DNA from: a virus
IMG/VR virus record: IMGVR_UViG_3300032326_000865
Coordinates: 1-64,000 of that record
DNA length: 64,000 nt
Direction: 5' to 3' (one strand)
The translations under genes were made by a program, and so were the position numbers. The notes beneath the pieces are model-generated. The model was not told where the DNA came from. It did not search any database and worked only from the letters and a program-made list of their open reading frames with translations. Below are positions 40 through 29,151 of this stretch, piece after piece (position 1 is the stretch's first letter; every line of letters begins with the position of its first letter).

Positions 40-369
40 TCAGAAGACACCAGAAACCTTGCGGAATTCCTCAAACAACACAGAGAGTTCCGGCGATCTA
101 ACGTTACCAAAACGCACGTCACAGTGGAGACGCTCTTCGTCACCGTAATACGCGTAGATTGAAACATCGGCTTTCTTGCTTTTTACCTCCTTGATTGCAG
201 TGGTGTAGATTTTCTTTTCGAGCGCGTCGCGAAGCTTCTTTTGGCGAGCGTTCTCCTCATCGTGCTTAACCTTCGCCCGAGTGACCATCGCCTCAATAAT
301 TTCGGTTTTGGTTGGCTTTGGGGTAAAGTTTTTAGTTCCAGTGACGGCAGTTGTTGTTGTGTTGTTCAT
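40..369 (-). CDS. hypothetical protein, 109 aa
   Basis: Not recognised. The ATG at 369 is followed by a Thr-rich, probably disordered N-terminus (residues 3-20), a charged helical stretch (about 25-65) and a short beta-rich C-terminus. The leader before the ATG is CA-rich and has no Shine-Dalgarno match. It is the last gene of the leftmost minus-strand cluster that is complete in this window; nothing is seen between 1 and 39. A role in early host takeover would be a guess from position only. Confidence 0.7.
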   Translation of the reverse strand: MNNTTTTAVTGTKNFTPKPTKTEIIEAMVTRAKVKHDEENARQKKLRDALEKKIYTTAIKEVKSKKADVSIYAYYGDEERLHCDVRFGNVRSPELSVLFEEFRKVSGVF

Positions 370-386
370 TTTTTGCTGTTGTTGTT

Positions 387-632
387 TTACTTAACCTCAA
401 AAAGGTAGTCAAAAATAGTTTTGTCTTCATTTGTTCCATAAGGAAGACAATCCGAGTTCCACAAATAAGGAAGGTCACTAATGGATTTGATCTCGCAAAT
501 GCATTGAGCTGAATCTCCTTCAGACTTCATGATTTCACTACCATAATGCCTTGCGATTCTACATGCTTCTTTTTCATCTTCAGCGACTACTACTGCAAAT
601 GCTTCAATGGCTACCTTGTAAAGCTTCTTCAT
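387..632 (-). CDS. small phage protein, 81 aa
   Basis: The protein opens with a beta strand (MKKLYKVAIEAFAVVVAEDE) followed by a helix with an acidic pair and ends in Leu-Phe-Glu-Val-Lys. This layout, strand then 'AEDE..A' helix then 'LP..W', resembles small phage proteins of unknown function that I have seen annotated only as hypothetical. Its start overlaps the stop of the upstream DUF3310 gene in an ATGA arrangement (629-632), so the two are probably translated together. No catalytic residues are evident. Confidence 0.75.
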   Translation of the reverse strand: MKKLYKVAIEAFAVVVAEDEKEACRIARHYGSEIMKSEGDSAQCICEIKSISDLPYLWNSDCLPYGTNEDKTIFDYLFEVK

Positions 633-1054
633 TTCCTTGTAATTCGATTAAGGTACCATTGAGCTTTCTTTAGGTCCTCGTTTCCGCCTTTGTGCTTTTC
701 TCTCCAGCTATATTTAAGGGCATTTCCTTTGCAGAAGCCTCGAAACTCTTCTGGAGTAAGAGCGGCCTCAATGGCATCAATACACTCAATGCTAGAATTA
801 GTATAATGAGGAGGATGATTAACCATGTCACTCTTCACGGTCTTACTTGAGTCAATCTTTGGCTTGCTGGTTTTCTTTTGGACCAATTCCATTAGATCTA
901 GGCTATGCTCCATTCTAGTAATGCTGAATTTTCCGTCACTTCTCCAAGAATAAATATCATTGGTGACTGGATAGGTGCCATTTTGGTGAACCTTGGTAAC
1001 TTTGTGAAGAGATCCATCCCTTGCCTTCCATGTCTGTCCTTTTCTAATAATCAT
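629..1054 (-). CDS. DUF3310 (SaV-like) domain protein, 141 aa
   Basis: The C-terminal half carries the hallmarks of the DUF3310 family common in phages: Val-Asn-His-Pro-Pro-His-Tyr near residues 79-85, the 'IECIDAIEAAL' helix, and the 'GNALKYSWREKHKG' and 'LKKAQWYLNRI' motifs at the end. The family is sometimes annotated as nucleotide-kinase-like, but its reaction has not been established to my knowledge. The first 60 residues form a small beta-rich N-terminal domain with Trp and Gly residues. It is coupled to the downstream gene by an ATGA overlap. Family assignment is confident, function is not. Confidence 0.9.
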   Translation of the reverse strand: MIIRKGQTWKARDGSLHKVTKVHQNGTYPVTNDIYSWRSDGKFSITRMEHSLDLMELVQKKTSKPKIDSSKTVKSDMVNHPPHYTNSSIECIDAIEAALTPEEFRGFCKGNALKYSWREKHKGGNEDLKKAQWYLNRITRK

Positions 1055-1068
1055 TTTTCGTTTTGGTT

Positions 1069-1326
1069 TTACATTTTAACTGCAAATTTAGCAGCTCTAT
1101 TTCCCAATCCTCCAACTACAAGTTTTCTATCAGGAAAGATAATGTTGAGCTTTGTAAGCTTTTGAGTGCAACGAATTACAGTAGACGGATCAAAAGCTGT
1201 CGCGCTTTCCATTTCCTGTCTGGTCATTGGAACTCCATTAGCAATCATAGTAACCAACAAGCCGTAATCTCTAAGAGAGAGCCCAAGATGAATTGCCCTC
1301 TCAATTTGTTTAGGGATTCCCTTCAT
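1069..1326 (-). CDS. winged-helix (MarR-like) DNA-binding protein, 85 aa
   Basis: The pattern is a helix (residues 6-24), a turn, a recognition-helix-like segment 'TAFDPSTVIRCTQKLTKLNII' and a short beta wing 'DRKLVVGGLG'. This is the organisation of a MarR-type winged helix, reduced to the DNA-binding core with no ligand domain. A role as a phage transcription regulator is likely by family but inferred. The start overlaps the stop of the upstream gene in ATGA (1323-1326), so it lies in the same translational chain as its neighbours. Confidence 0.7.
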   Translation of the reverse strand: MKGIPKQIERAIHLGLSLRDYGLLVTMIANGVPMTRQEMESATAFDPSTVIRCTQKLTKLNIIFPDRKLVVGGLGNRAAKFAVKM

Positions 1327-6923: not shown

Positions 6924-8096
6924 TCAAATTGCTTTTTTGATTCGCTTTCTGGATTGGACAATAACCTGCTTGATAAGGTATTGCTGGAATGACAAGCTGT
7001 AATCCACAAAACCTTTGTGATGTGCGCTTTCTTCAAAGATAGTCTGAACTAGCTCAAATTGACCAGATTCAAACGCCTTGTCAGTGAGGTGCATTGCGCC
7101 GTCGTAATAGTAGGCAACGACATTAGAATCACTAGAATCAACGCGATGGATCTGACAGTCCACTCTGTAGCCAGATTGCTCAAGAAAGTCGCAAGCGTCT
7201 TGAACCATGAGCTTTTCATCATCAGTCATTTCCTTAATGGCAAATCCAGAAGAGGGATTACGAAGACGAAGAATGTTGGCGATTTTAGGATTCAGTGAAG
7301 TTGGGCGCTTCTTCCAAACTTCATTGACGGTTTCCTCCATTTCTTTGGACCAAGTATTGTCGTAATCAAACTCAGACTCAATACCTTTGGAGGTGATGAG
7401 CTTTTCAATTAGGCTCTTGTCCTTGAGGTGTTTACAAATAGCCACACCTACAGTGTAACGGAACGCGTAGATGTTTGCCATCGTACGGTCTTCCGTCAGG
7501 TCAAGATGAGAAAGAATCTCGTAAGACCAATTGGCTTGCTGAAGCTCAGAAACTTTAACACCGCGAAACCAAACGTCACCCTTGCCAGTGTAGAAATTGA
7601 CAGTATTGGTCTTAGCAATTGGCTCACGATCACCAATAAAGATACGATCATTATTCTTGTGAGAATCAATGATTTCTGGACCAGTGACGACAATAGAAGT
7701 TCCAGCACTCAAAGGGCCACTTGCCAGAAGGCATACCCCAGACTCGTCCATGGTATTGGACATGAGCTCGCGATATGCTTGATCAACAGTCCACTTGAAT
7801 CCGTAGTGAGTCGTGAATGCAAGGTGCTTGCCATTGCAAAGAACACGCTGGAACTCTTGACCACGGAATTCCATTTTCTCGAGACTGAACTCATAAACTT
7901 TACCAGATTCGCAATGGATTGTAACTTCGTGTCCAGTTCGGAGAAGCACTGCGATTGCATACTTAAATCCAGTTCCAAACATTCCAATGCTCTCTTCATT
8001 GGTCTTTACTGACAGACCCATAAGCTCCCAAGCACCGGGATTGATTTCTCCGTTAGTATGGAACACTACGGATTTGTTTTCTTGAATTGTGTTCAT
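6924..8096 (-). CDS. GHKL-fold ATPase-like protein, 390 aa
   Basis: 'GMFGTGFKYAIAVLLRTG' at about residues 38-55 matches the G1-type glycine box of GHKL ATPases (histidine kinases, Hsp90, MutL), and 'AYRELMSNTMDE' at about 107-118 resembles an N-box with Glu/Asn. The C-terminus has 'IFEESAHHKGFVDYSLSFQQYL', a His/Glu cluster like that in other phage ATPases of this size. The biological role is unknown. T4 RIIA is the best-known phage protein of the fold. It heads the minus-strand chain 8096-5490 and is divergent from the gene at 8274. Confidence 0.65.
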   Translation of the reverse strand: MNTIQENKSVVFHTNGEINPGAWELMGLSVKTNEESIGMFGTGFKYAIAVLLRTGHEVTIHCESGKVYEFSLEKMEFRGQEFQRVLCNGKHLAFTTHYGFKWTVDQAYRELMSNTMDESGVCLLASGPLSAGTSIVVTGPEIIDSHKNNDRIFIGDREPIAKTNTVNFYTGKGDVWFRGVKVSELQQANWSYEILSHLDLTEDRTMANIYAFRYTVGVAICKHLKDKSLIEKLITSKGIESEFDYDNTWSKEMEETVNEVWKKRPTSLNPKIANILRLRNPSSGFAIKEMTDDEKLMVQDACDFLEQSGYRVDCQIHRVDSSDSNVVAYYYDGAMHLTDKAFESGQFELVQTIFEESAHHKGFVDYSLSFQQYLIKQVIVQSRKRIKKAI

Positions 8097-8273: not shown

Positions 8274-8774
8274 ATGAATCGAATCGAAGCAGCAGAGGAA
8301 TGGATATCCACCCAATCTGAGGCAGCACGAACGACGCTCGCCAAAGCCATAGCAGGAGCGTGGACTCTGGCGCTTCCACTGTTGCTATCGTTGTCAGGGT
8401 TATCCACAGCAAACAAAATCCTAGGTAGTGTCCTCTGGGTTTCAGCGACGCTGAATTTATTTCTTCTCGTGCGGGTGTGCTGGCATCGAACACAGAACAG
8501 GCGACGTGAAGTCGATCAAGCCAAGTTACCTGAACCACCTTCACTTGATGGTTTTGACTTGAGCGTTTTGATCCGATTGGTTGCATACGACGTAGGGTCA
8601 GGAGTTCACAGACTCGCGAACGACATGGGCGTAGAGTCCTTTAAGGTTTCGCACAGCACCGACAAACTGCTGGCCTGCGGCTATGTGGATTACCTCAGAG
8701 AATCGTCGTCCGGTTCGGTTTACCGCGCCAATGCCGCAGGACGTTCGCGGTGTCTCAACCCACCGAAGAAATGA
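8274..8774 (+). CDS. membrane-anchored winged-helix protein, 166 aa
   Basis: The N-terminus is a charged helix, then two hydrophobic spans follow at about residues 29-47 and 49-67 ('ILGSVLWVSATLNLFLLVRV'). From about 95 on there is a helix-turn-helix and wing-like segment with 'DMGVESFKVSHSTDKLLACGYVDYL' and a strand pair. It would place a DNA-binding or sensing domain in the cytoplasm beneath the membrane. A purine-rich stretch precedes the ATG. It is the only plus-strand gene in the 8-11 kb insert and is followed within a few bases by the first attC-like site, like an ordinary integron cassette. The G+C content is higher than in phage core genes. Confidence 0.65.
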   Translation: MNRIEAAEEWISTQSEAARTTLAKAIAGAWTLALPLLLSLSGLSTANKILGSVLWVSATLNLFLLVRVCWHRTQNRRREVDQAKLPEPPSLDGFDLSVLIRLVAYDVGSGVHRLANDMGVESFKVSHSTDKLLACGYVDYLRESSSGSVYRANAAGRSRCLNPPKK

Positions 8775-8779
8775 AGAGC

Positions 8780-8909
8780 AACGAACAAGGCGTGCCATAC
8801 AACCGCTACCAGCCCTACTGTCGGCGGAGTCTTGGCGTGGCTTCATGGCTTCACCCCCGTTTCGAAGCTGGCTCTCGCTGGTAGCGGTGTATGCACTTTG
8901 ACGTTCAGC
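8780..8909 (+). other. attC-like site 1
   Basis: The cores are AACGAAC (8780-8786) and GTTCAGC (8903-8909). The arms at 8792-8813 and 8877-8896 form a perfect 20-base-pair stem once C8796 and one A at 8801-8802 are left unpaired, matching the extrahelical bases of true attC sites. The 63-base loop holds the end of the minus-strand gene at 8843. The site directly follows the plus-strand gene 8274-8774. Confidence 0.8.
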
Positions 8910-9208
8910 TCATAAAATCCATCGGGGCGCTTTTTGAATAGGTGGGCTCGATTAGGGTCAACGTGCGCCCGCAATCCGCCTTCCAACGGTTTCGGCAGCC
9001 GCTCGAACGTGGTCAGTTGCTTTTCCTGATTTTCCCAGAAACGGATTGAGTATGCCGCGCCGATGATGTTCCCGAGGATCTGATCGACCGGACCGAACAC
9101 GCCTCCCTTGTGCTCGTATGGTGTGATTTCGCGGAGATTTGACCACGCGATGTCGATGCGTTGGCCGGGTTTGAGGCTTCCTACAAGTTGGATGAGTCGT
9201 TGTTTCAT
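8843..9208 (-). CDS. cassette-borne hypothetical protein, 121 aa
   Basis: The ATG at 9208 begins 16 bases after the GTTCAGC core (minus strand) of the site at 9224. The protein has 'GQRIDIAWSNLREITPYEHKG' and 'VDQILGNIIGAAYSIRFWEN' segments and a strand-rich C-terminus ('RPDGFYELNVKV'). Codon structure and residue mix look genuine. Its last 20 or so codons run across the cassette boundary at 8903 and into the loop of attC-like site 1, so the C-terminus depends on what lies next to it. Function not recognised. Confidence 0.65.
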   Translation of the reverse strand: MKQRLIQLVGSLKPGQRIDIAWSNLREITPYEHKGGVFGPVDQILGNIIGAAYSIRFWENQEKQLTTFERLPKPLEGGLRAHVDPNRAHLFKKRPDGFYELNVKVHTPLPARASFETGVKP

Positions 9209-9223
9209 GGTGATTCGAGCAAA

Positions 9224-9310
9224 GCTGAACAAGTCGCGGATGGCGACGGCGATCAGCCGTCAATTTGATTTCAATCTCCAGCGCGCCGCGCCATCGCTGG
9301 ATCGTTCAGC
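9224..9310 (+). other. attC-like site 2
   Basis: The cores GCTGAAC (9224-9230) and GTTCAGC (9304-9310) are exact complements. The arms are 9236-9251 and 9284-9297. GCG, ATGGCG and CGGCG of the left arm pair fully with the right arm after G9239 and A9246 are left out. The spacers are AAGTC on the left and TGGATC on the right. Overall length is 87 bases. Confidence 0.85.
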
Positions 9311-9584
9311 TCACTGATTCGGGCGTGTATTCGACGACCGCTTCCATCTTGGCCAAGTAGTGGATTCGAATGTTCCGCGATGGTCTGCCGCGCCCATCGG
9401 TTGCCCAGTAGATCACCTTGACGGAGCCGGACCAATCAGGCTTCGGCTCGAACTGCTTTTCGTCGTCGTAATCGACCTCAACGGTCATCTCGAAGCGCTT
9501 GATTCCTTGCGCTTCCGCGAGGGCGGCGGCGGCTTTGGCGAAACCCTCAAGCGAGGGCGGGATTGTTGGTTTGGTGGCGTTCAT
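9306..9584 (-). CDS. cassette-borne hypothetical protein, 92 aa
   Basis: It starts at the ATG at 9584, 17 bases after the minus-strand GTTCAGC core of the next site, and its TGA stop is formed by the GCTGAAC core of site 2. The gene therefore fills its cassette exactly. The N-terminal half is an Ala-rich helix. The rest is beta-rich with 'RFEMTVEVDYDDEKQFEPKPDWSG' split by Asp and Glu, then 'NIRIHYLAKMEAVVEY'. Not recognised; probably a small single-domain soluble protein. Confidence 0.7.
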   Translation of the reverse strand: MNATKPTIPPSLEGFAKAAAALAEAQGIKRFEMTVEVDYDDEKQFEPKPDWSGSVKVIYWATDGRGRPSRNIRIHYLAKMEAVVEYTPESVS

Positions 9585-9600
9585 AGGTAGTTCGGGGAAA

Positions 9601-9687
9601 GCTGAACAAGAAGATGGTGGAGACGGCGATCAGCCGTCAGATGGAAGCGGAGCTTGTTCCGGCCGCTCCACATCAGGGACGTTCGTG
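9601..9687 (+). other. attC-like site 3
   Basis: The left core is GCTGAAC (9601-9607) and the right core GTTCGTG (9681-9687). GATG, TGGAG and CGGC at 9613-9627 pair fully with GCCG, CTCCA and CATC at 9662-9674 once G9617 and A9623 are excluded. Length is 87 bases, the same as site 2. Their left halves share a long direct match. Confidence 0.85.
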
Positions 9688-9914
9688 CTACGGAATTCCA
9701 GAGCCTCGCGGTTGAGTTCAGGCCGGAGCTTGTATCGACCACAGCAGTTGCACCTCCATTCGGATCGCATCCCGTTGTGGTAGTTGATCTGATCGCCGTA
9801 GATGTTGCGGACGAAGCGGTCCACATGCCCGCCAGTTTTCCAGCAGTAGTGCCGCGCCCGAAGAGCACGAACAAGTCGCGGCAGAGAAACCGCCCATAAT
9901 CTTTTCAATTTCAT
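9630..9914 (-). CDS. cassette-borne CxxC protein, 94 aa
   Basis: The central part 'HVDRFVRNIYGDQINYHNG' and 'RSEWRCNCCGRYKLRP' resembles small phage and mobile-element proteins with a Trp-x-Cys-x2-Cys-Gly knuckle that may bind zinc. The ATG at 9914 is the first suitable start, but it sits in the loop of its own attC-like site (9866-9962). The stop at 9630 lies in the loop of the neighbouring site. The start is therefore less certain than the frame. A C-terminal Pro/Glu-rich tail follows the folded part. Confidence 0.6.
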   Translation of the reverse strand: MKLKRLWAVSLPRLVRALRARHYCWKTGGHVDRFVRNIYGDQINYHNGMRSEWRCNCCGRYKLRPELNREALEFRSTNVPDVERPEQAPLPSDG

Positions 9915-9962
9915 TTCATTGGCCTTTCTTGCGCGGCGGTGCCTGCGCTGTTGTCGTTCATC
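9866..9962 (+). other. attC-like site 4
   Basis: The left core is CACGAAC (9866-9872), the exact complement of the GTTCGTG that opens the same cassette at 9681. The right core is GTTCATC (9956-9962). GCG and CAG pair with CTG and CGC after G9881 and A9885 are skipped, and ACCGCC pairs with GGCGGT further in, with a small internal loop. It is less perfect than sites 1-3 and 5. Confidence 0.7.
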
Positions 9963-10158
9963 CAATAATTTGGCATTCGGGCGGGTAGTAATCGAACATG
10001 CAGACCACATTGTGGTGATCCAGTTTCAGCTTCAGGAAGCAGTCATCCGTTCCGACGACCATTCCCACATGCGGCGTTTTCCCGTCGCGTTCGACCATCA
10101 CCTCGCAGCCGAGCGTGAAGGACGTTCCGAACATTTCGTTGATTTCTTCGAGCGTCAT
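9958..10158 (-). CDS. cassette-borne small protein, 66 aa
   Basis: The ATG at 10158 follows the minus-strand GTTCATC core of site 5, and the TGA stop is built into the GATGAAC core of site 4. An upstream extension exists but would be read through the attC-like arm. The protein begins 'MTLEEINEMFGTSF' and continues with strands 'LGCEVMVERDGKT', 'GMVVGTDDCFLKLKL', a layout like a small SH3-type barrel. No family was recognised. Confidence 0.65.
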   Translation of the reverse strand: MTLEEINEMFGTSFTLGCEVMVERDGKTPHVGMVVGTDDCFLKLKLDHHNVVCMFDYYPPECQIIG

Positions 10159-10163
10159 AAGAG

Positions 10164-10250
10164 GATGAACAAGTTGGTGGATGGAACGGCGAGGAAGTCT
10201 ATTGGTGAGGCGGCGCTGGTTCGCGCCGTCCATCACCATCGGCGTTCGGC
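10164..10250 (+). other. attC-like site 5
   Basis: The left core GATGAAC (10164-10170) is the complement of the GTTCATC opening its cassette at 9956. The right core is GTTCGGC (10244-10250). GGTG, ATGG and ACGGCG at 10176-10191 pair perfectly with CGCCGT, CCAT and CACC at 10224-10237 when G10180 and A10185 are left out. Length is 87 bases. Confidence 0.85.
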
Positions 10251-10489
10251 TTAACTGAAATCTTCCCGTTTTCGTTCCAAACCATCAGCGGCCATTTGTG
10301 ATCGTTTCGATTCTTGGACTCGCAAGCCAGGCACACCACCGACAGCAGCTTGTCCCAGGCGTCGCCCATCGTCTCGCCGCTCACCTCCACATGAACAACG
10401 AACGCCGAACAAGGCGCGGCAGCGGCAACCCCCGACCCGTCATCGGTCGGAGTTGCCGGGGTGGATTCTTGGATAGGTTCAGGGGTCAT
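10199..10489 (-). CDS. cassette-borne hypothetical protein, 96 aa
   Basis: The first 30 residues are Pro/Thr/Ala-rich and probably disordered. The folded part has 'SAFVVHVEVSGETMGDAWDKLLSVVCLACESK' as strand then helix. The ATG overlaps the stop of the upstream gene in ATGA (10486-10489). The start lies in the loop of site 6 and the stop in the loop of site 5, the same plan as the gene at 9630-9914. Not recognised. Confidence 0.65.
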   Translation of the reverse strand: MTPEPIQESTPATPTDDGSGVAAAAPCSAFVVHVEVSGETMGDAWDKLLSVVCLACESKNRNDHKWPLMVWNENGKISVKPNADGDGRREPAPPHQ

Positions 10490-10531
10490 GTTCGTTCTCG
10501 GTCGGGGTTGCCTGCGCTTGGGATGTTCTCG
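10404..10531 (+). other. attC-like site 6, less regular
   Basis: The left core GCCGAAC (10404-10410) is the exact complement of the GTTCGGC that opens its cassette at 10244. The right core is GTTCTCG (10525-10531). The arms 10416-10437 and 10500-10517 share GCG, CAG, GCAACCCC and GACC once four extra left-arm bases are skipped. The loop is long and holds the overlapping start and stop of two genes. It is the weakest of the six structurally but fits the core-matching rule. Confidence 0.6.
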
Positions 10532-10899
10532 GGATCGAATGTTCCGTCCCGGTGGTCGTAGCGAGCGGCCAGATCGGGGATGACTGGCGTGCCTTTCGCG
10601 TCGAGCTTCAAAGTGGCGGCGCGAAACAGCCGTTCGATTTCCGCCACGATCAAGGCACCAGCTTTGACCAGGTTCCGAACAGGATCTTCGCTGGGTCTCC
10701 ATGCCTCGTCTTCAAACGGCCAATGGTCTTCGCAGTCGCCCAGATTGTGGCCGTTGTTCCAGAGCACGGCTTCGTGCGTGTAGCACATTGCGGCCACGGC
10801 GATTTCGCCGTGGATGTGCTCGTCATCGTGCGCGGCGGCGTAGCCCAGCGAGCGTTGGTTTGCTCTCTCAAGTTCGATCAGTTCAAGTTCGGTTTTCAT
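10486..10899 (-). CDS. phage AHDDxH-type hypothetical protein, 137 aa
   Basis: The ATG at 10899 overlaps the stop of the upstream membrane-protein gene in ATGA. 'YAAAHDDEHIHGEIAVAAMCY', 'WPFEDEAWRPSEDPVRNLVKAGALIVAEIERLFRA' are hallmarks of a widespread small phage and prophage family with a His/Asp cluster, unnamed to my knowledge. Its function is not known to me. The last part of the gene overlaps attC-like site 6, so it probably marks the phage-side edge of the array. Confidence 0.8.
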   Translation of the reverse strand: MKTELELIELERANQRSLGYAAAHDDEHIHGEIAVAAMCYTHEAVLWNNGHNLGDCEDHWPFEDEAWRPSEDPVRNLVKAGALIVAEIERLFRAATLKLDAKGTPVIPDLAARYDHRDGTFDPENIPSAGNPDRERT

Positions 10900-11033
10900 T
10901 TCGTTGTGATTTCGACGTTTCGGATGATCCATGCGACGATCTCACCAAGCTTCCACATGGCCAGAGGCAGGGAGATTAGGAGCGCGATTCCGAGGACCTT
11001 GAAGCCTCTCCAGATTCCTGAGAATTGATTCAT
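10896..11033 (-). CDS. single-span membrane protein, 45 aa
   Basis: Too short for ordinary ORF calling, but ATGA overlaps join it to both neighbours (10896-10899 and 11030-11033). Residues 11-40 ('GFKVLGIALLISLPLAMWKL' and onward) form a membrane span with a Trp on each side, flanked by polar ends. Function unknown. Small membrane proteins of this type are common in early phage operons. Confidence 0.65.
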   Translation of the reverse strand: MNQFSGIWRGFKVLGIALLISLPLAMWKLGEIVAWIIRNVEITTK

Positions 11034-17114: not shown

Positions 17115-17341
17115 GATCTTGTGTAATTCCTTTGAACTCGGGAGGTTGGTTGTGTGGACGTAGCTCCATCCCGAAACTGGAGAGTAGTCCATTCTGAGTC
17201 GCAGGACGCCACTACAGCACGCCTTCCGCTGGTCTTTGAGGTGACCAGCTCACCCTGAATGAAGAAGCCCCCAGCGACTTGCTGAGGGCTCTTCTCTGCG
17301 ATAAGGAGCATCCGCTCCACCCAGTCTTCAGACAGAATCAT
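17111..17341 (-). CDS. hypothetical protein, 76 aa
   Basis: The ATG at 17341 overlaps the stop of the 27-residue membrane protein upstream (ATGA), which decides the start. It reads as helix ('EDWVERMLLIAEKSPQQVAGG') then strands ('GELVTSKTSGRRAVVASC') and a basic tail. Not recognised. Confidence 0.6.
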   Translation of the reverse strand: MILSEDWVERMLLIAEKSPQQVAGGFFIQGELVTSKTSGRRAVVASCDSEWTTLQFRDGATSTQPTSRVQRNYTRS

Positions 17342-17421
17342 CCGAAGATTAGGAGCAGGATGTAAGCAATAGCCGCCCAAAGGGAGAGGCTGATGGCGAC
17401 ATGAAGAGGAATGTAGTTCAT
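17338..17421 (-). CDS. 27-residue membrane peptide
   Basis: Short, but supported by three facts: an unusually strong Shine-Dalgarno (AAAGGAGGAGG, ending three bases before the ATG at 17421), ATGA overlaps with both neighbours, and a hydrophobic sequence ('LSLWAAIAYILLLIFG') that is one membrane span. Function unknown. Confidence 0.65.
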   Translation of the reverse strand: MNYIPLHVAISLSLWAAIAYILLLIFG

Positions 17422-17630
17422 GCCTCCTCCTTTACGCTGAATTGGACGTAGTTGCCAACTGCCGTGAAGCAGTAGGTAATCTTACCCCTCTTCAGAATAC
17501 CGTCTTCAAGAGCGGCACCTTGATCCTTTAGCCACCGATAAAGGCGGACTGCGTATGGACGAGCAAAGCGTCCTTCTTTCTTTGAGCAATCCCGAAGGAC
17601 TGCGGCAAACGAGCGGTCAATTGCGTTCAT
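17418..17630 (-). CDS. hypothetical protein, 70 aa
   Basis: It looks like a compact winged-helix-sized domain: 'RPYAVRLYRWLKDQGAALEDGILKRGKITYCFTAVGNYVQF', helix-turn-helix then strands. It is coupled by ATGA to both neighbours. A small DNA-binding protein is plausible, not shown. Confidence 0.65.
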   Translation of the reverse strand: MNAIDRSFAAVLRDCSKKEGRFARPYAVRLYRWLKDQGAALEDGILKRGKITYCFTAVGNYVQFSVKEEA

Positions 17631-17896
17631 TGTTCTTCTTGGTTGAAAAGTTGGTCAAAGCGATCCTTAAAGCTTCCCGGCTCAATACTGGAGGCAACTT
17701 CTTCTTTGGGTTTCGTTTTGCTCTCCTCGACCAATCTGTCGAAGAGAGCCTTAATTGTAAGCACCTCTCCGGTTTCCCTGTTCGAAGCTTCATTTTGAAC
17801 CCCACATGGTTCGCAGAACTCAATCCAATCAGGACCGAGAACGAGCATGTTCGTCGGGATGCGACGCTTGTTGCAATATACGCATTGGTTAGCCAT
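17627..17896 (-). CDS. zinc-knuckle protein, 89 aa
   Basis: Start at the ATG at 17896 (MANQCVYCNKRR). The longer open frame upstream is Arg/Ser-rich and less likely. Two C-x2-C pairs, 'CVYC' at residues 5-8 and 'CEPC' at about 28-31, form a typical small zinc ribbon. The rest is a charged helical tail. It may bind nucleic acid or a host protein. ATGA overlap with the next gene. Confidence 0.7.
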   Translation of the reverse strand: MANQCVYCNKRRIPTNMLVLGPDWIEFCEPCGVQNEASNRETGEVLTIKALFDRLVEESKTKPKEEVASSIEPGSFKDRFDQLFNQEEQ

Positions 17897-17988
17897 ACTA
17901 TTCTTTCTACTGGAGCTGGACTCGTCAGCACGGTGCTCCCATTTGTTCGTCCTAAACCGTGGACCCCTTACGGGGGTTAATCGCAACA

Positions 17989-18225
17989 TCAAAGATCAAC
18001 CGGAACGCTTTCAGTGCGCCAGATGTCCGCTATGATGACCGTCTTTACCTTGCGATAACGACGACGGCCATCCTTGGTGATCCTCCATTCACCTTCAAAC
18101 CGAGCATTAAGCATTTCTTCATGCCCCTTTATCAGACTCGAAAGCCTGTCAGCCTCAGCCTGAGAAGCAGCAAGTTCTTCCTCAAGTTTTGTGATACCCA
18201 ATAGTCTCTTAATTAGTTTCTTCAT
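17989..18225 (-). CDS. coiled-coil small protein, 78 aa
   Basis: 'KLEEELAASQAEADRLSSLIKGHEEML' at residues 13-39 is a coiled coil. The C-terminus is a basic strand-rich piece with 'ITKDGRRRYRKVKTVIIADIW'. Not recognised. The 92 bases between it and the next gene hold no gene. Confidence 0.65.
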   Translation of the reverse strand: MKKLIKRLLGITKLEEELAASQAEADRLSSLIKGHEEMLNARFEGEWRITKDGRRRYRKVKTVIIADIWRTESVPVDL

Positions 18226-18278
18226 GTCTTGTCATTCTATTTAAGTGAGCAGTTTAACGACTTGCTCAGGTCATCAAC

Positions 18279-18530
18279 TCAAGCCATCCGAAGCTGGAAG
18301 ATCCTTTCCTCAAGGCGCTCGATAGCTCCGCGAACCATCATGCATGCCGATAACGGAATCGACATCGTGAGCAGGGAAGCGGCAATGCACTCCCATTCAC
18401 CCGAGAAGCAGGAAGCGACAGTCACCGCACCCATCACTGCCGTGCTAATGCAGCAGACAACGAGCTCTTGCTTTAGGATTCTAATTTCCTTTAACATCTT
18501 GTTCCGTTCAATGTATTGTTCTGCCTTCAT
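18279..18530 (-). CDS. two-span membrane protein, 83 aa
   Basis: A charged helix (residues 1-20) is followed by two hydrophobic spans at about 24-42 and 47-68, then a short basic helix. The layout, two spans with both ends cytoplasmic, is like that of a class II holin, but it lies on the early strand far from the endolysin, so holin is only one possibility. Leader: a purine-rich AGAAAGAGAA before the ATG. Confidence 0.6.
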   Translation of the reverse strand: MKAEQYIERNKMLKEIRILKQELVVCCISTAVMGAVTVASCFSGEWECIAASLLTMSIPLSACMMVRGAIERLEERIFQLRMA

Positions 18531-18585
18531 ACGGTTCTCTTTCTAATGCAGTGAGCCACGCTGCTGTTGTTGCTCTCTCTTCAGG

Positions 18586-18604
18586 CTACATCAACACGAT
18601 GTAG
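18586..18604. other. hairpin in divergent intergenic region
   Basis: CTACATC and GATGTAG pair around a 5-base loop, between the divergent genes starting at 18530 and 18781. The rest of this 250-base gap holds the promoter-like sequence near its right end and no gene. Confidence 0.45.
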
Positions 18605-18746
18605 TTGCTGATCGCTGTGAGTTCTAAGTCTCTCAGCAGGGGGCGACGGGTGTCTATCGACTCCGCACATCCCACACAAACACCACCAGAGAATTTATGG
18701 CATCCCCATGGAAAATTTAATTTCCCCGCAAAAAATAAATTATAAA

Positions 18747-18774
18747 TTGACCCATTTTTTTGTTTTGATAATAA
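18747..18774 (+). promoter_or_regulatory. sigma70-type promoter candidate for the late genes
   Basis: TTGACC (18747-18752), a 16-base T-rich spacer and TAATAA (18769-18774) precede the ATG at 18781 by only six bases. If real, the mRNA would be leaderless or nearly so. Confidence 0.4.
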
Positions 18775-18780
18775 GGTTTT

Positions 18781-19362
18781 ATGCCTGACTATAATGATGT
18801 CATTGATAATGTCGCGACTACTGTTGATGTTGCTGATAAAATGCATTCGTCAATAAAAGCTGCAAGGATTGCGGCTCGAGACACTGCTGGTAAGGTTGTT
18901 TTGAAAAAAGCTGCTTTGAAGGCCGTTGCCTCGCCTATTGAGGCTGGCTTGATGGCGTTGGAGGTTGGAAGGCTGGCTACTGATGAGGAATTGCGTTTGA
19001 AGAGAATGAAGGAAGCGGAGGAGCTTGCTAATGAAAGTAATCCTGCGATGAGGGCTTTAAAGACTCAGGTGAATCCCATTGGAACTATTTATGGTGCTGG
19101 TCAGGCCATTTATGACACTGTTGCGATTAATGCCGGTCAGAAGGATAGGGATTTGGAATATGAATTGGAGAAGAAGCGCGTAATGGATCGCAGGGCTGGA
19201 AAAGAAGAGGAGAAGGCGAGTGGTGTTCGGAATGAGGTTCGTGCTTTTGATGCTTTTAATAACCGTGTTCACGTGGAGCCTTTGAAGAAGCCTGAGGAAG
19301 ACGATAAGGAAATTGGGTTGGCTTTGGTTCGTTCTTATTTTGAAGGTAGTAAGCTTATTTGA
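18781..19362 (+). CDS. hypothetical late protein, 193 aa
   Basis: Not recognised. Almost entirely helical and rich in Ala, Lys and Glu, with 'IRVEP'-like hydrophobic breaks. It starts 'MPDYNDVIDNVATTVDVADK' and has a Gly/Ala-rich middle ('INPIGTIYGAGQAIYDTV' type). Its stop lies three bases before the ATG of terL. Position suggests a packaging or internal virion protein; alternatively it could be a membrane-associated helper. Confidence 0.65.
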   Translation: MPDYNDVIDNVATTVDVADKMHSSIKAARIAARDTAGKVVLKKAALKAVASPIEAGLMALEVGRLATDEELRLKRMKEAEELANESNPAMRALKTQVNPIGTIYGAGQAIYDTVAINAGQKDRDLEYELEKKRVMDRRAGKEEEKASGVRNEVRAFDAFNNRVHVEPLKKPEEDDKEIGLALVRSYFEGSKLI

Positions 19363-19364
19363 TT

Positions 19365-21116
19365 ATGAGTCTAATTGTGGATGGATGGACGTTTCCTGAT
19401 GGGACAGGTAAGATTGAGGCTAATTTGTTTTTGTTTGCCCGTGCCGGAGAGGGGAATGATGTTTCGAGAACTTCTGATCAGAGGTTTCAGAACCTGAAGA
19501 GGGCTATTGATTTGGCGTTTAATTGCGAGGATTCGATTCGTCGTGTTGTTTGGAATCGGTGGACTCTTAGGATTTTGCGGAAGCTGGTCCGTGATTGGGA
19601 AAAGAAGAGGTTCCTTGGAATTGCGGGTTGTTCTTCTTCTGGAAAGTCAGACACGGTGGCTTTGTTTGGGCTGATGCTTTATTGGGCTCGCCCTGCTGAG
19701 ACCTACTTCATTGTGATGTCCACTACCAAGCAGGCGGCTCGAATGCGTATTTGGAAGTCGATTACGCAATTCTGGGGTCAGGCTGTAGAAATGGGATGCC
19801 CCGGCAAACTCATTGACTCTGACGGCTACATCAAGGGGGTGGACCAGAAAGGAAAACTTTGGCGGAACTCTGGTATTGTCCTAATGGCTGCTGGCAATTC
19901 TGACGCAGAGCAGGCGTGCAAAGATCTTCTGGGTATTAAGAACCCCGTCGTAATGGTTGCTGCGGACGAGTTCAATGAGCTTGGTGATGGCATTCTGAAG
20001 ACGGCGTTTGAGAACATGACTTCAAATGATAGGATGGTCTTTTGTGGCATGGCTAACCCAGACAAGCTAACTGATCCATTTGCTGACCTCTGTGAGCCTC
20101 AGGATGGCTGGAAAAGCGTCACGGAAGAGGATGAAGAGTGGGAGACCAAGTATGGTGAATGCATTCGCCTAGACGCCGAGAAAAGCCCTAGAATCTTGGA
20201 TGAGGGTGGCGACAAGTTCTTTTGGCAACCGGATCAGGCTTACTGTGATAGAATTGCTGAAGCTCGCGGTGGACGGAAGTCGAGAGGCTACTACCGATTC
20301 GTTAAGGCCTTCTGGTGTCCAGATGGTGCTGCTAACTCAATTTACTCTGAGGTGGAGTTTCTGAATGGGTCTGCATTAAATCAGGACGAGCCTGATTGGG
20401 ATGGTCCTACAATGATCCTCACGGCGCTCGACCCTTCGTTCTCGCGTAATGGCGACAGGTCCAGCTCTGCTTATGCAAAATTAGGCAAGGCTAATGGAGT
20501 TGATCACCTTCACTTTTGTCACTTCAAGTCATTTTCTGAAGACATCAATGACAAAGACACAGCTCATAGCCATCAAATCGTACGCCAATGGATGGAACTT
20601 AGCATGGATTTCGGGGTAAGACCCTCTAATGCAGCAATGGATAACACGGGTTCAGGCACTCCATTTGGTCATATTGTGGACATGGAGTGGAGTCCCGCGG
20701 TTTCTAAAATCAATTTCCAAGGCAAAGCATCTGAACGAACAGTGGTATTCAGAAATGAAGACTGCACATTTTACAACAAGAACTCCGAATTGTGGATTCA
20801 ACCTAAGGAATACTTTAGATCAAATCAGATTTCAGGCATTTCCAAAGAGGTAATGGCGGAATTGGTTGAACGTGAGTATCATCCTAAGGAGGGAAGAACT
20901 CTTCGGGTGGAATCCAAAGAAGAGGCTAAGAAGAGACTTAAGCGTTCCCCTGACCTTGCTGACGCTGTTTTGATGGTAATTGACAAAGCAATCTCTCTCG
21001 GCAGGCTACAAAGCATTGAGGTTAAGAGTATTGCAAAGATGGTAGACCATGGGTGGCGAAAAGAAAAAATGAGGAAATCAATTTCGACTGGATGCGGTAG
21101 AAGATTGATTCGTTGA
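19365..21116 (+). CDS. terL: large terminase subunit TerL, 583 aa
   Basis: The ATPase domain carries the Walker A motif 'GCSSSGKS' at residues 88-95 and a Walker B 'VVMVAADEF' about 100 residues later. The C-terminal nuclease domain starts at 'MILTALDPSF', whose Asp is the usual first metal ligand of the RNase H-like fold, and ends with 'PDLADAVLMVIDKA'. It cuts the concatemer and pumps DNA into the prohead through the portal encoded at 22.0 kb. The ATG at 19365 is used; the TTG two codons earlier overlaps the previous stop. Length is typical of the family. Confidence 0.95.
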   Translation: MSLIVDGWTFPDGTGKIEANLFLFARAGEGNDVSRTSDQRFQNLKRAIDLAFNCEDSIRRVVWNRWTLRILRKLVRDWEKKRFLGIAGCSSSGKSDTVALFGLMLYWARPAETYFIVMSTTKQAARMRIWKSITQFWGQAVEMGCPGKLIDSDGYIKGVDQKGKLWRNSGIVLMAAGNSDAEQACKDLLGIKNPVVMVAADEFNELGDGILKTAFENMTSNDRMVFCGMANPDKLTDPFADLCEPQDGWKSVTEEDEEWETKYGECIRLDAEKSPRILDEGGDKFFWQPDQAYCDRIAEARGGRKSRGYYRFVKAFWCPDGAANSIYSEVEFLNGSALNQDEPDWDGPTMILTALDPSFSRNGDRSSSAYAKLGKANGVDHLHFCHFKSFSEDINDKDTAHSHQIVRQWMELSMDFGVRPSNAAMDNTGSGTPFGHIVDMEWSPAVSKINFQGKASERTVVFRNEDCTFYNKNSELWIQPKEYFRSNQISGISKEVMAELVEREYHPKEGRTLRVESKEEAKKRLKRSPDLADAVLMVIDKAISLGRLQSIEVKSIAKMVDHGWRKEKMRKSISTGCGRRLIR

Positions 21117-21186
21117 CATTTTTCCAGATTTAGCTAATTTTTCCGCGAGGAGGCTTGTTGGTGAAAGCCAGAGCTTTCTCATTAAT

Positions 21187-21258
21187 CGCGGGATGGCGCA
21201 GAGGTAGCGCAGAAGTTTCATAAGCTTAAGGTCGTGGGTTCAAATCCCACTCCCGCAA
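21187..21258 (+). tRNA. tRNA-Met (CAT), initiator-like acceptor end
   Basis: The acceptor stem pairs GCGGGA with TCCCGC and leaves C1 opposite A72 (21187 and 21257), a mismatch that is a hallmark of bacterial initiator tRNA. D-arm GCGC/GCGC, anticodon loop TTCATAA, T-arm GTGGG/CCCAC with TTCAAAT. The anticodon stem lacks the three G-C pairs of initiator tRNAs, so it is a hybrid type. No CCA is encoded. It stands alone between terL and portal. Confidence 0.9.
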
Positions 21259-21280
21259 TTTTTTCCTTGCTGCATCCGTT

Positions 21281-21660
21281 AACGGGGTAGAGCTTCTTCC
21301 CACTTCGAAGCTCTACCTCGTTGTTCACCACCAGAGTCCTTCCCCTGCAAAAGGAGAGGCCCGCATTTCAATGGTAGAGCGTTGATTTGCGGGCTTTCTC
21401 TTGTCCGCGTGGTTCCAACGGCAGCACCATTACAACAGCAAGCCCTTTTTCCTAGGAGGCCACAAGCGTGGGATGAGCGGGAATTAAAACAAGGCTCATC
21501 AGCGGTTCCCTTTCCATTCGACTTCTTTAGCTTGCGGCTAAGGGGGAAGGAGGGGGTTTGGAGAGAAAGTGCCTTTTACAAACAAACAAACAAGTCCGAT
21601 GGGTTTGTAGCCTAGAAAATTAGAGGGCTTGACATTAGTTTGGTAATGGTGTTTACCAAC
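21281..21660 (+). other. structured non-coding stretch between tRNA-Met and the next gene
   Basis: No convincing gene. A 16-base-pair hairpin (21281-21296 with 21307-21322, one G-T pair), a GCCCGCA/TGCGGGC hairpin (21359-21394) whose loop contains a D-arm-like AATGGTAGAGC, and a GATGAGC/GCTCATC pair further on lie in about 380 bases. It could be an RNA gene or a string of tRNA relics. Confidence 0.45.
21629..21659 (+). promoter_or_regulatory. TTGACA box and inverted repeat before 21665
   Basis: A consensus -35-type TTGACA (21629-21634) precedes the inverted repeat TTGGTAA...TTACCAA (21640-21659), which ends five bases before the ATG at 21665. The matching -10 box is poor. The repeat could be an operator or, in the RNA, a hairpin over the start. 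Confidence 0.35.
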
Positions 21661-21664
21661 ATTC

Positions 21665-21976
21665 ATGCCACTTATTAATTTTGGAGCTACGCCAGCAACC
21701 GTAAGGGTCCCCGTTCCGGTTGGAAGATCATTTGTGTTTTCCATTCATGGTCCCGCAACAGGTGCTACAGCTGTTTCTATTTCATATTATACAGGTAGTG
21801 CTTGGATCGGATTAACTTCACTCACTCCTAATGAGGGTATTATTGAGGCAACAAGCGGGCAGCATATTAATTACGGGCCAATTAATGAAATCGAAGTGAA
21901 ATCCATCGGTAACGCTTCCGGCACCAACGTAAACGTCGTAATTAATGTTATTCCGATTGAGCGGGCCTTGATGTAA
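21665..21976 (+). CDS. small beta-rich structural protein, 103 aa
   Basis: Alternating strands with Gly/Thr turns ('VRVPVPVGRSFVFSIHG', 'AVSISYYTGSAWIGL', 'VNVVINVIPIERALM') suggest a small beta sandwich of the decoration or head-fibre type. It sits between terL and portal on the late strand. No family recognised. Confidence 0.65.
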   Translation: MPLINFGATPATVRVPVPVGRSFVFSIHGPATGATAVSISYYTGSAWIGLTSLTPNEGIIEATSGQHINYGPINEIEVKSIGNASGTNVNVVINVIPIERALM

Positions 21977-22000
21977 TTTTCGGTATTAATAAGCTACTGC

Positions 22001-24358
22001 ATGAGCCTTTTCAACGATTCAGAGCAAGCTCTTGATGAGCTTAAAACAGTCTCAATTAAATCCGATGGGGATTTCGATGTTCCAGAGGAGAGACTGACAA
22101 GCCCAGCTGCGGCTAGGAATATCTACGAAACACTCGAGGAAGCTGACGGTGATTCCTCAAGAAATCGTTCCTTGGTTCAAGGCTTGATGGATTTTGTTCC
22201 ACCTCATGATGAGGTTGAAATGGAAAACAAGGGTCAGTCAGATCGTTTCAACATTACTACTGGAGAAGGTCCGGCAATCAAGAATGAAGCTGTTGCTGCG
22301 TACGTTGACATCTACACTAATCCCAAGACCCTTGCGGAAATTCCGTTGATGTCTGATGTTGATCCCAACTACTCAGAAACGTGGTCGCTGATCATGGCTG
22401 AGGAGTTCACTACAATGGATCGCTCGGACGATGCTTCGATGCCAAATCACCTTCAACTTGCTGATCTTTACGTGACGCACGGTGTCGGCATTTGCTATTT
22501 TGATGACAAGGAAACCATGCAGTACTCGGTTGGTGGCCTTGATCACTTCAAGTTCCCTCGAAAAACCGGCATTGTTTCCTCCAAGGTTGAGCTTTGTTGC
22601 GCTCTTGGAACCTATACCGTGCCTCAACTTTACCGGAAGATTGATGCAAATGGCTGGAACAAGGAGGAAATCATGGCCATTCTTAGCCATCACGCTGGTT
22701 CTACTAAGCCTGAATGGGATAATTACGAAGAACTCCAGCGCGACATTAAAGCCAATGAGCTTTACGTTGAGTCTATTTGCGACCCAATTGAAGTGATTCA
22801 CACTTGGGTTCAAGAACTCGAGTCCAAGAAAATTTCTTATTACATCAGTTCCCGTCATGGAAGAGAATCCAAGTCCAATCAGAATCAACGTGAAGAAGAG
22901 TTCCTTTTCAGAGAACGTGATTACTACGATTCGGCAGATCAAGCATTCCAGATTTTCCCATTCTCTGTTGGCAATGGTGGCAAGCTTTATACTGTTCGCG
23001 GATTGGGATATTTGATTTTCCAGCTCTGCAACGCAATGGACGTAATGCATTGCAAGCTAATGGATAATGCTAGAGTTGGATCTTCCCTGATTGTCCAACC
23101 TGCTACCATTGAGGACGCCCAAGATGCCCAGCTTATTGATGCGGGTCCATTCTTGATGCTTCCTCCTACAATGCGCATCCCTGAGCGCCAGACCCAGATT
23201 GACCTCAATCGCGCAATTATTCCGGCGATTAACGAGAGTCGAAACATTCTGAATCGCGCCACTGGCGGCATGGCATCCGGTTCGATGATGCTTCAGGATG
23301 ATAAAGATCGTCAAACAAAGCTGGAAATTAGCTCAAAGTTGGATTACATCAATAAACTCAATTCATTTGCGATTTCCTTGTTCTACGGTCCTTATGACAA
23401 GATCATGAGGGAGAAGGTGAGAAGAGCATTTACCGTCAAGCAGAAGGATAGAGAAGCTGCACAGCGCGTGAAGGAAATGAAGGAGCGGTGCATTGCTAGA
23501 GGTGTTCCTCCTGAGATTTTCAATAAGATTGACGTTAAGAGGGTTAGAGCTAGTCGCATTATTGGCACTGGATCTCGCGCATCGAGAATTATGCTTCTGG
23601 ATCAAGTTTCCCAGATGTTTGCGGAAATGGATGCTGTTGGCCGCAAGAATTTCACTTACGATTACCTTGTTGAGCTTCTTGGCGTTGATAAGGCCAATCG
23701 CTACCTTGGAGAGCCTGATACGAAGCGCTTCCCTGTTGATTACAAGTTGGCGAAACTTGAGAACTTCGAAATGCTTGAAGGGGATTACATTGATCCCGTG
23801 GACGGTGAAGATCACCTTGTTCACCTTGGCGTTCACATTGAAGAGCTTGAAGTTGGCCTTAAGGATGTTGATGAAGGCGTTCTTGATCTTTCTGATTGGA
23901 CCATTGAGCACCAGCAGTTGTATCGCCATTGCACTGCTCACCTTGAAATGGTCACTGTTCACAAGACGGTCATGCCAGAGCTTAATGCCTATCGCCAGCG
24001 CGTTCAGCAGATTGGCGAGATTGTCGTCAACGGCATGAAGCAGATTAACAAAATGGCTAGAGAGGGAGAGCTTGCAAATCAAGGCAAGCAGGCTGGCGCT
24101 TCTGATCTTCAGATTAAGGAACAGAAGGCTCAGCAGGAAATGGCTCACAGAGAGCAGTCGCATCAGCAGAAAATGGCGATTGACGCTCAGGAAGCCTCCA
24201 TGAGAATCCGCGCTGATCTTGCTAAGCTTGAGGCTAGTAAGATGGCATCGGAGGCCAAGGTTACGCTTGAAGCTCAGAAAGCCATTGCGAAAATTGCAGC
24301 CTCTGAAGCAGAGTTGCAATCTAGGATTGACACAGCTAGCCGAAACGGAATCAACTAA
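22001..24358 (+). CDS. portal protein (head-tail connector), 785 aa
   Basis: Position after terL and before scaffold and capsid, plus length near that of P22-like portals (about 725), supports this. The middle includes 'GRSDRF'-type loops and 'FPFSVGNGGKLYTVRGLGYLI', common in podovirus portals, and residues 415-430 include 'GGMASGSMM'. The last 100 residues are a long Gln/Lys/Ala coiled coil, as in the C-terminal barrel of some portals. It forms the dodecameric ring through which DNA enters and leaves. Confidence 0.8.
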   Translation: MSLFNDSEQALDELKTVSIKSDGDFDVPEERLTSPAAARNIYETLEEADGDSSRNRSLVQGLMDFVPPHDEVEMENKGQSDRFNITTGEGPAIKNEAVAAYVDIYTNPKTLAEIPLMSDVDPNYSETWSLIMAEEFTTMDRSDDASMPNHLQLADLYVTHGVGICYFDDKETMQYSVGGLDHFKFPRKTGIVSSKVELCCALGTYTVPQLYRKIDANGWNKEEIMAILSHHAGSTKPEWDNYEELQRDIKANELYVESICDPIEVIHTWVQELESKKISYYISSRHGRESKSNQNQREEEFLFRERDYYDSADQAFQIFPFSVGNGGKLYTVRGLGYLIFQLCNAMDVMHCKLMDNARVGSSLIVQPATIEDAQDAQLIDAGPFLMLPPTMRIPERQTQIDLNRAIIPAINESRNILNRATGGMASGSMMLQDDKDRQTKLEISSKLDYINKLNSFAISLFYGPYDKIMREKVRRAFTVKQKDREAAQRVKEMKERCIARGVPPEIFNKIDVKRVRASRIIGTGSRASRIMLLDQVSQMFAEMDAVGRKNFTYDYLVELLGVDKANRYLGEPDTKRFPVDYKLAKLENFEMLEGDYIDPVDGEDHLVHLGVHIEELEVGLKDVDEGVLDLSDWTIEHQQLYRHCTAHLEMVTVHKTVMPELNAYRQRVQQIGEIVVNGMKQINKMAREGELANQGKQAGASDLQIKEQKAQQEMAHREQSHQQKMAIDAQEASMRIRADLAKLEASKMASEAKVTLEAQKAIAKIAASEAELQSRIDTASRNGIN

Positions 24359-24383
24359 CTACATCGTTAGTCGAGACTAATTT

Positions 24384-24638
24384 ATGAGCAACCTGTTCTC
24401 TGAGAAGGAAAAAGAGCGTTTGCGCTCTATGATTAAGAGCCCTCTATTCGTAAAAGCCACGCAAGAGGCCCTAGGGACGATCTGGAGGGCTCAGTCTGGA
24501 GCTGAGGGGCAAGAGGCCTGTGCGCTTGCGTTCGCCTACTACAAGGGCTCCTGCGAGGTTCTATCTGCAATTCACATAATTGCTGACAAACCGATGATCA
24601 TGCCGCCCAAGCCATCCAGACTCAATCACAAAGCGTAA
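24384..24638 (+). CDS. hypothetical protein, 84 aa
   Basis: Mostly helical: a charged N-terminal helix, then 'FVKATQEALGTIWRAQSGAEGQEACALAFAYYKGSCEVLSAI'. It sits between portal and scaffold. Small helical proteins at this place may be scaffold helpers, but nothing decides it. Confidence 0.65.
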   Translation: MSNLFSEKEKERLRSMIKSPLFVKATQEALGTIWRAQSGAEGQEACALAFAYYKGSCEVLSAIHIIADKPMIMPPKPSRLNHKA

Positions 24639-24676
24639 GCAATTAAAACATAGCCAAACCAATTAAAAACTAGATC

Positions 24677-25924: not shown

Positions 25925-25972
25925 GTTAATTTCTGGATAATAAATCTTATCCGAAAAAAAGTAGTTGTAATT

Positions 25973-26180
25973 CGAGCGGACAGTGTTAGAAGGAACTTGA
26001 ACTTGCTGGTTAGGCAGGTTCGAAAACTCCTCCTGACCTGTCCGCTCGGTGCGTAATCCGTTCTAGCCAATCCGTCCGAAGCCTTAAAGTAAGGCTCCGT
26101 TTTGTCTTCAGGCAGCTAAAATAGCTCCGAACATAGATTATCCATTTACCAAATTTACACCGCGTTTTAACGCACCCCGA
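25973..26180 (+). promoter_or_regulatory. structured leader of the capsid gene
   Basis: A long hairpin (25973-26048) has a perfect 11-base-pair base CGAGCGGACAG/CTGTCCGCTCG, a further imperfect 10 pairs and an 8-pair tip. After it come GCCTTA-AAG-TAAGGC followed by T-rich sequence, then two short hairpins (AGCTA/TAGCT and GCGTT/AACGC) up to the ATG at 26183. It may set a separate transcript end and boost capsid expression. Confidence 0.5.
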
Positions 26181-26182
26181 TT

Positions 26183-27700: not shown

Positions 27701-27709
27701 TTTTAACCC

Positions 27710-27748
27710 ACTCCCGGCTCAATAACCCATGTTGGGCCGGGAGTTTTT
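27710..27748 (+). terminator. intrinsic terminator after capsid gene
   Basis: ACTCCCGGC-T-CAA pairs with TTG-G-GCCGGGAGT (13 pairs, one G-U), followed by a run of five Ts. It lies 10 bases after the capsid stop. Confidence 0.9.
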
Positions 27749-27781
27749 CTTTAATGGGTACATAGTTAAATTACTCAAATC

Positions 27782-28219: not shown

Positions 28220-28225
28220 TTAGCC

Positions 28226-28262
28226 AAAGCTAAAGCCTTAGAAGTCCTGGGGCTTTAGCTTT
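28226..28262 (+). terminator. terminator-like hairpin
   Basis: AAAGCTAAAGCC and GGCTTTAGCTTT form a 12-pair stem with a 13-base loop, just after the stop at 28219. The T-run is part of the stem, so termination may be partial. Confidence 0.55.
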
Positions 28263-28277
28263 CTCATAACGACAATC

Positions 28278-28481: not shown

Positions 28482-28498
28482 CGGATCACATTGAATCA

Positions 28499-28675: not shown

Positions 28676-28735
28676 CGCTACCCAAAACATTTCCTGCAAT
28701 TAACTCCAAATTAAAACACTAAGTAAAATAAGCAT

Positions 28736-29133: not shown

Positions 29134-29151
29134 TTTCTAAGGATTAAAATT

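What the first reader, a model, noticed from the sequence alone, without database searches (positions are those of the whole stretch)
8780..10531. A run of six integron attC-like sites inside a phage genome
Seen: six inverted repeats in a row, each with nnnGAAC-AAG at the left, GTTCnnn at the right, and paired inner arms in which extra bases stand out only in the left arm (for example C8796 and an A at 8801-8802; G9239 and A9246; G9617 and A9623; G10180 and A10185). These are the properties of folded attC sites, where unpaired bases set the recombination polarity. Known: attC cassettes are a feature of integrons, and their presence as an array in a phage is rarely if ever described. Inferred: the phage picked up, or itself shuffles, gene cassettes using a host or missing integrase.
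Basis: partly seen in the sequence, partly recalled or inferred. Interest (0 to 1): 0.93.

Follow-up and report, generated by a model that had tools for sequence, protein, structure and literature searches.

The report
Inverted-gene integron cassettes in a phage
This virus genome, in which no integrase was found, carries a real row of six integron recombination sites of a type found in Verrucomicrobia bacteria, but most of its cassette genes point the opposite way to normal, an arrangement seen again in other phages, one of which also carries the enzyme that moves cassettes.

Summary
The array is real. A covariance model built only from other contigs finds five sites in the window, all at 8780-10250, all on the + strand, with E from 2e-23 to 0.002; nothing else reaches E<=10. 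The sixth site (10403-10532) is weak. Each right box (GTTCxxx) is complementary to the left box of the NEXT site, not its own (shared prefixes 8,8,9,8,7 against 4,8,4,4,4,4), the signature of excisable cassettes.

No integrase was found in the 69.4-kb record, so this is a CALIN (attC cluster lacking an integrase). The attC family is that of Verrucomicrobiales integrons: site 1 is 91% identical to host arrays, and one host carries IntI beside such sites. Site 2 (90-93%) and one cassette (87%) recur in three other viral records.

CALINs in phages are already published (Qi et al. 2023). New here: the genes of cassettes 2-6 run opposite to attC polarity. Host arrays score about 84 co-oriented against 4; most phage arrays are counter-oriented, and their attC sites resemble each other more than host ones. 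Two other phages of this set encode IntI, one with a complete inverted-gene integron. Verdict: real, a new variant of a known kind.

The parts
8780..8909 (+). attC site 1, host type, long loop; extra bases C8796 and A at 8801-8802
   Evidence: R1 44.8 bits, E 5.5e-11; 91% identical over 128-160 bases to host genomes G323 and G387
9224..9310 (+). attC site 2; extra bases G9239 and A9246
   Evidence: R1 84.8 bits, E 2.3e-23; 90-93% identical in viral records G010 and G002
9601..9687 (+). attC site 3; extra bases G9617 and A9623
   Evidence: R1 71.4 bits, E 3.3e-19
9866..9962 (+). attC site 4
   Evidence: R1 20.4 bits, E 0.0018; R' and R'' boxes pair with neighbours
10164..10250 (+). attC site 5; extra bases G10180 and A at about 10185
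   Evidence: R1 53.6 bits, E 1e-13; 93% identical in G401:C98
10403..10532 (+). probable attC site 6, weak
   Evidence: R'' matches R' of site 5 over 7 bases; only 6.5 bits with R1
8274..8774 (+). gene of cassette 1, same direction as attC; unknown function
   Evidence: 57% aa homolog in host genome G372; codon score
8843..9208 (-). gene of cassette 2, opposite to attC; unknown function
   Evidence: 86% aa identical in phage G001; 28 of 42 differences at third codon positions
9306..9584 (-). gene of cassette 3, opposite to attC; stop codon abuts R' of site 2
9630..9914 (-). likely gene of cassette 4, opposite to attC; possible start inside attC 4
   Evidence: two overlapping minus-strand frames, so this one is the less certain
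9958..10158 (-). gene of cassette 5, opposite to attC
10199..10489 (-). possible gene of cassette 6, opposite to attC; reads from the attC 6 loop into attC 5
   Evidence: its strand was not resolved by the codon score

Best explanation
The segment from about 8.2 to 10.5 kb is a cluster of integron gene cassettes without an integrase (CALIN) in a phage that probably infects Verrucomicrobiales. Six attC sites separate small cassette genes of unknown function. Each attC folds as single-stranded DNA into a hairpin with extra-helical bases on one arm, and an integron integrase (IntI) supplied in trans, by the host integron or by a phage- or prophage-borne integron, could cut at G|TT and move cassettes in and out. 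Shown: the sites, their covarying fold, the R'(i)/R''(i+1) pairing expected of circularised cassettes, the shared attC family in hosts with IntI, and the same cassette or attC with different neighbours in other phages. Shown with lower certainty: cassettes 2-6 hold genes opposite to attC polarity, like most other phage-borne arrays of this family, while cassette 1 is of the normal host type. Inferred: the host, the source of the IntI, that movement still goes on, and that the phage's own leftward transcription rather than an integron promoter expresses the inverted genes.
For: Model hits, covariation, next-site box pairing, no integrase in the record, IntI next to sites of this family in host G024 and in phages G009 and G003, site-by-site matches to hosts and phages ending at attC edges, shared cassette with L003, higher GC of the cassette genes than of two flanking genes, orientation split, attC nearest-neighbour sorting.
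Against: No recombination was observed; no second copy of this phage spans the locus, so gain or loss within the species is untested. Site 6 is weak. No R'0 partner (GTTCGTTG) exists for site 1 and no convincing R''7 partner for site 6, so the outer edges look decayed. TerL has no relative in 377 Verrucomicrobia genomes, so the host is inferred from attC only. Two viral contigs (L016, L017) are co-oriented.
Confidence: 0.87

Rival explanations
1. The array is inert cargo: a block of a host or prophage integron array captured once by ordinary recombination and no longer moved by any IntI.
For: No integrase in the record; outer boxes without partners; weak site 6.
Against: One host-type cassette (site 1, gene in normal direction) sits beside cassettes of the inverted type, which a single block capture does not explain simply; box pairing is intact for all five inner cassettes.
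Confidence: 0.35
2. The hairpins are terminators or other fixed regulatory repeats, not recombination sites.
For: They lie between or at the ends of genes, and attC sites can act as weak terminators (stated in PMC9892861).
Against: Extra bases always in the same arm, conserved AACAAG...GTT boxes, next-neighbour box pairing, IntI beside such sites in host and phage genomes, shared segments ending at attC edges.
Confidence: 0.03
3. The contig is a chimera of phage and bacterial DNA, so the array is not in the phage.
For: Cassette genes are richer in GC than two flanking genes; the only second copy of this phage does not cover 8-11 kb.
Against: Other records with capsid, portal or terminase genes carry arrays of the same kind, with the same cassette or attC.
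Confidence: 0.05

Closest known systems
CALINs in virulent phages (Qi et al. 2023, PMC9892861: TJE1, P12002L, PH101)
   Same: Several attC sites with small genes between them and no integrase, in a phage genome
   Different: Other hosts and another attC family (R1 does not hit TJE1); TJE1 and PH101 are described as having the typical one-direction layout, whereas here most genes oppose the attC polarity
Complete integrons in temperate phages (Vibrio phage Va_90-11-286_p16, MK672802)
   Same: Integron parts inside a phage genome
   Different: That phage carries IntI and Vibrio-type attC taken from its host; R1 does not hit it. Phage G009, found here, is the nearer analogue, with inverted genes
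Sedentary chromosomal integrons of Verrucomicrobiales
   Same: Same attC family, same R'/R'' rule, IntI next to the array
   Different: Host arrays are about 84 co-oriented against 4; the phage array is counter-oriented and has no IntI

Membership tests
attC site | R'' (..AAC) and R' (GTT..) boxes around a covarying imperfect hairpin | tested here: met
   five sites clear, the sixth weak
attC site | Extra-helical bases on one arm only, with short unpaired spacers next to the boxes | tested here: met
   Alignments
attC site | Belongs to a family found next to intI | tested here: met
   G024:C17, phages G009 and G003
attC site | Recombined by an IntI, bottom strand preferred | not testable with these tools
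   Needs an attC x attI assay
attC site | Hit by the published IntegronFinder or HattCI models | not tested
   Models not available here; Rfam gave no attC hit
Gene cassette | TT... at the cassette's 5' end complementary to the R'' of its own attC | tested here: met
   7-9 bases for five of five inner cassettes
Gene cassette | Gene in the same direction as its attC | tested here: not met
   Met for the gene before site 1 only; cassettes 2-6 are inverted. A common but not a strict criterion
CALIN | At least two attC sites and no intI | tested here: met
   the record may be incomplete
Complete integron | intI and attI next to the array | tested here: not met
   No IntI in 69.4 kb
Tailed phage | Terminase, tail and replication genes in the same record | tested here: met
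   TerL phrog_2 E 1e-5, minor tail E 7e-9, DnaB E 8e-25, ERF E 9e-42

The most novel reading that the evidence does not exclude
Phages of Verrucomicrobiales keep a cassette pool of their own, with genes inverted relative to attC so that phage transcription rather than an integron promoter expresses them. It is moved by phage-borne IntI (complete inverted-gene integron in G009, IntI in G003) and shared among unrelated phages, with the window phage as an integrase-less user that has also taken up a host-type cassette.
Probability: 0.35. Interest if true: 0.82.

Novelty: new variant of a known kind. Interest (0 to 1): 0.6.

Why it matters
It ties phage-borne attC arrays to a host lineage and shows the same cassette and attC sites in several different phages, which makes phages likely carriers of integron cassettes in Verrucomicrobia. 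A class of arrays with genes opposite to attC polarity would depart from the textbook layout, in which an integron promoter reads the cassettes, and can be tested directly.

Tried and rejected
Rfam has no attC hit at gathering threshold. A strict DNA pattern of sites 2 and 3 found no viral contig; a looser one worked, although many of its genome hits outside Verrucomicrobia are chance (no R' box). Left-flank protein 6924-8096 and TerL gave no related phage that spans the locus. No DNA or TerL match among 50,697 GenBank phages, and no TerL relative in 377 Verrucomicrobia genomes. Pfam, PHROGs and PADLOC give no function for cassette genes 1-6. The orientation split was first suspected to be a polarity error and was rechecked with third-codon-position changes, a Pfam hit and host arrays. 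The codon score used for orientation is imperfect: it called the DNA methylase cassette of G009 the wrong way round, and Pfam settled it. IntI tree: G003 IntI is sister to a Luteolibacter marinus IntI beside an inverted array (100/100), but G009 IntI is a long branch of unsure place. IntegronFinder and HattCI models were not available.

Full report
WHAT IS THERE. The window is bases 1-64000 of a 69,405-base IMG/VR virus record. It encodes a terminase-like protein, minor tail protein, DnaB and ERF, and a 12-kb contig from a second sample matches 17217-29222 at 99.97%. Between 8780 and 10532 lie six inverted repeats of the form nnnGAACAAG ... GTTCnnn. Cassette genes have 52-60% GC against 34-43% for two flanking genes.

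INDEPENDENT TEST OF THE SITES. A pattern taken from sites 2 and 3 and from contig L003 found similar sites in viral contigs and in about ten Verrucomicrobiota genomes. Nineteen sites from those contigs, none from the window, were aligned. The named fold is kept in 91.2% of cells, 10 of 18 pairs show changes on both sides, and slid versions come nowhere near. The model R1 hits the window five times at E<=10, all on the + strand in 8780-10250, with E from 2.3e-23 to 0.0018. Site 6 scores only 6.5 bits and is kept as probable.

CASSETTE SIGNATURE. Integron cassettes circularise by joining the TT... at their 5' end to the G of their own attC (established knowledge of integrons). In an integrated array the R' of site i should therefore be complementary to the R'' of site i+1. 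In the window the shared prefixes are 8, 8, 9, 8, 7 for next-site pairs and 4, 8, 4, 4, 4, 4 for own-site pairs; 2 of 720 assignments do as well, which is expected because two of the R'' boxes are identical. The same rule holds in most host and phage arrays.

NO INTEGRASE FOUND IN THE RECORD. Neither PF00589 nor TIGR02249 matches in the 69.4 kb. By definition this is a CALIN, with the caveat that the record may be a fragment. IntI above the curated cut-off is present in eight of the Verrucomicrobiota genomes searched. In G024:C17 (the contig of L046 and L050) intI lies at 234-1148 (-), with attC sites of this family from 1957 on the + strand.

MODULAR SHARING. Cassette 2 (8908-9259) is 87% identical to a stretch of contig IMGVR_UViG_3300020044_006781, a different phage with its own TerL, portal and capsid genes, and the homology stops next to the R' box. 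Site 2 (9208-9310) is 90-93% identical in viral records G010 and G002. Site 1 (8782-8909, or 8763-8921) is 88-91% identical in host genomes G323, G371 and G387, and site 5 (10162-10247) is 93% identical in G401. The matches end at or close to the attC edges, so different genes accompany these copies. The gene of cassette 1 has a 57% homolog in G372, where R1 finds no attC.

GENE ORIENTATION. The extra bases in the left arm and the AACAAG box make the + strand the attC top strand. Gene 8274-8774 lies on the + strand just before site 1, the normal layout. The genes of cassettes 2-6 lie on the minus strand. For cassette 2 this is supported by substitutions (28 of 42 at third codon positions; 21 synonymous to 9 nonsynonymous single changes); for the rest by ORFs and codon scores, with cassette 6 the least certain. 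Scored by one rule, host arrays are about 84 co-oriented against 4, whereas the window (5/5), phage G009 (7/7 called), phage G010 (4/4 called), single cassettes in other viral contigs, and two genome contigs (L. marinus C118, G401:C98) are counter-oriented. In G009 one counter-oriented gene is an N6_N4 DNA methylase. Viral contigs L016 and L017 are co-oriented, so the split is strong but not absolute, and the inverted arrays were gathered partly with a pattern from window sites 2 and 3. The attC sites sort the same way: 29 of 39 sites from inverted arrays have their nearest relative in another genome's inverted array, although these make up 39 of 172 sites, and 130 of 133 canonical sites are nearest to canonical ones. 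Window site 1, with the normally oriented gene, is host type; sites 2, 3 and 5 are of the inverted type.

OTHER PHAGES WITH IntI. G009 is a tailed phage (TerL E 1e-160, portal E 2e-92, major head protein) with IntI at 28094-28885 and more than ten attC sites from 29309: a complete integron with inverted genes. G003 (terminase, tail, head-tail adaptor) has IntI next to an attC at its contig end; this IntI is sister to the IntI beside the L. marinus inverted array.

MECHANISM. Most likely, IntI supplied in trans by a host or by another phage recombines folded bottom strands of these sites, so that the phage can gain and lose cassettes without an integrase of its own. Transcription of the inverted genes would then come from the phage's own leftward gene block (inference from the minus-strand ORFs around the array). 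Recombination itself was not tested, and inert cargo remains a serious rival.

AGAINST THE LITERATURE. Qi et al. 2023 (PMC9892861) found 17 CALINs and several complete integrons in phages and showed that IntI1 uses phage attC sites, so phage CALINs are known. Searches of the held library for Verrucomicrobia integrons and for inverted cassette genes gave no paper that describes inverted-gene arrays or attC in Verrucomicrobia phages, judging by titles and abstracts; most subscription journals are not held.

Noticed in passing
L120 / G009:C1:28094-35904 (IMGVR_UViG_3300048930_000405): Tailed phage with its own integron integrase, more than ten attC sites and inverted cassette genes, one an N6_N4 DNA methylase: a complete phage integron.
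   Followed up: partly
G003:C1:30180-31506 (IMGVR_UViG_3300042563_004759): Phage contig with IntI next to an attC at the contig end; its IntI is sister to one in Luteolibacter marinus C118.
   Followed up: partly
L131 (G021:C118) and L115 (G401:C98): Two Verrucomicrobia genome contigs with inverted-gene arrays; whether they are prophages or other mobile elements was not settled.
   Followed up: partly
window 10486-10932: The gene just right of site 6 matches the C-terminal part of several PHROG families of unknown function (best E 1.7e-23), so it may be a resident phage gene rather than a cassette.
   Followed up: no
L002 3136-4088 (record 67136-68088): Three consecutive small proteins that begin alike (MSDTPRIDA, MSETPRTDA, MSDRPTPRTD), apparently a tandem paralog family.
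   Followed up: no
window 42516-57773: A single 5085-residue open frame, unusually long for a phage of this size.
   Followed up: no
attC sites, e.g. window 9246-9261: The left arm of many sites carries ACGGCGATMAGCCGT, a local hairpin that competes with the long-range attC pairing; conserved in hosts and phages.
   Followed up: no
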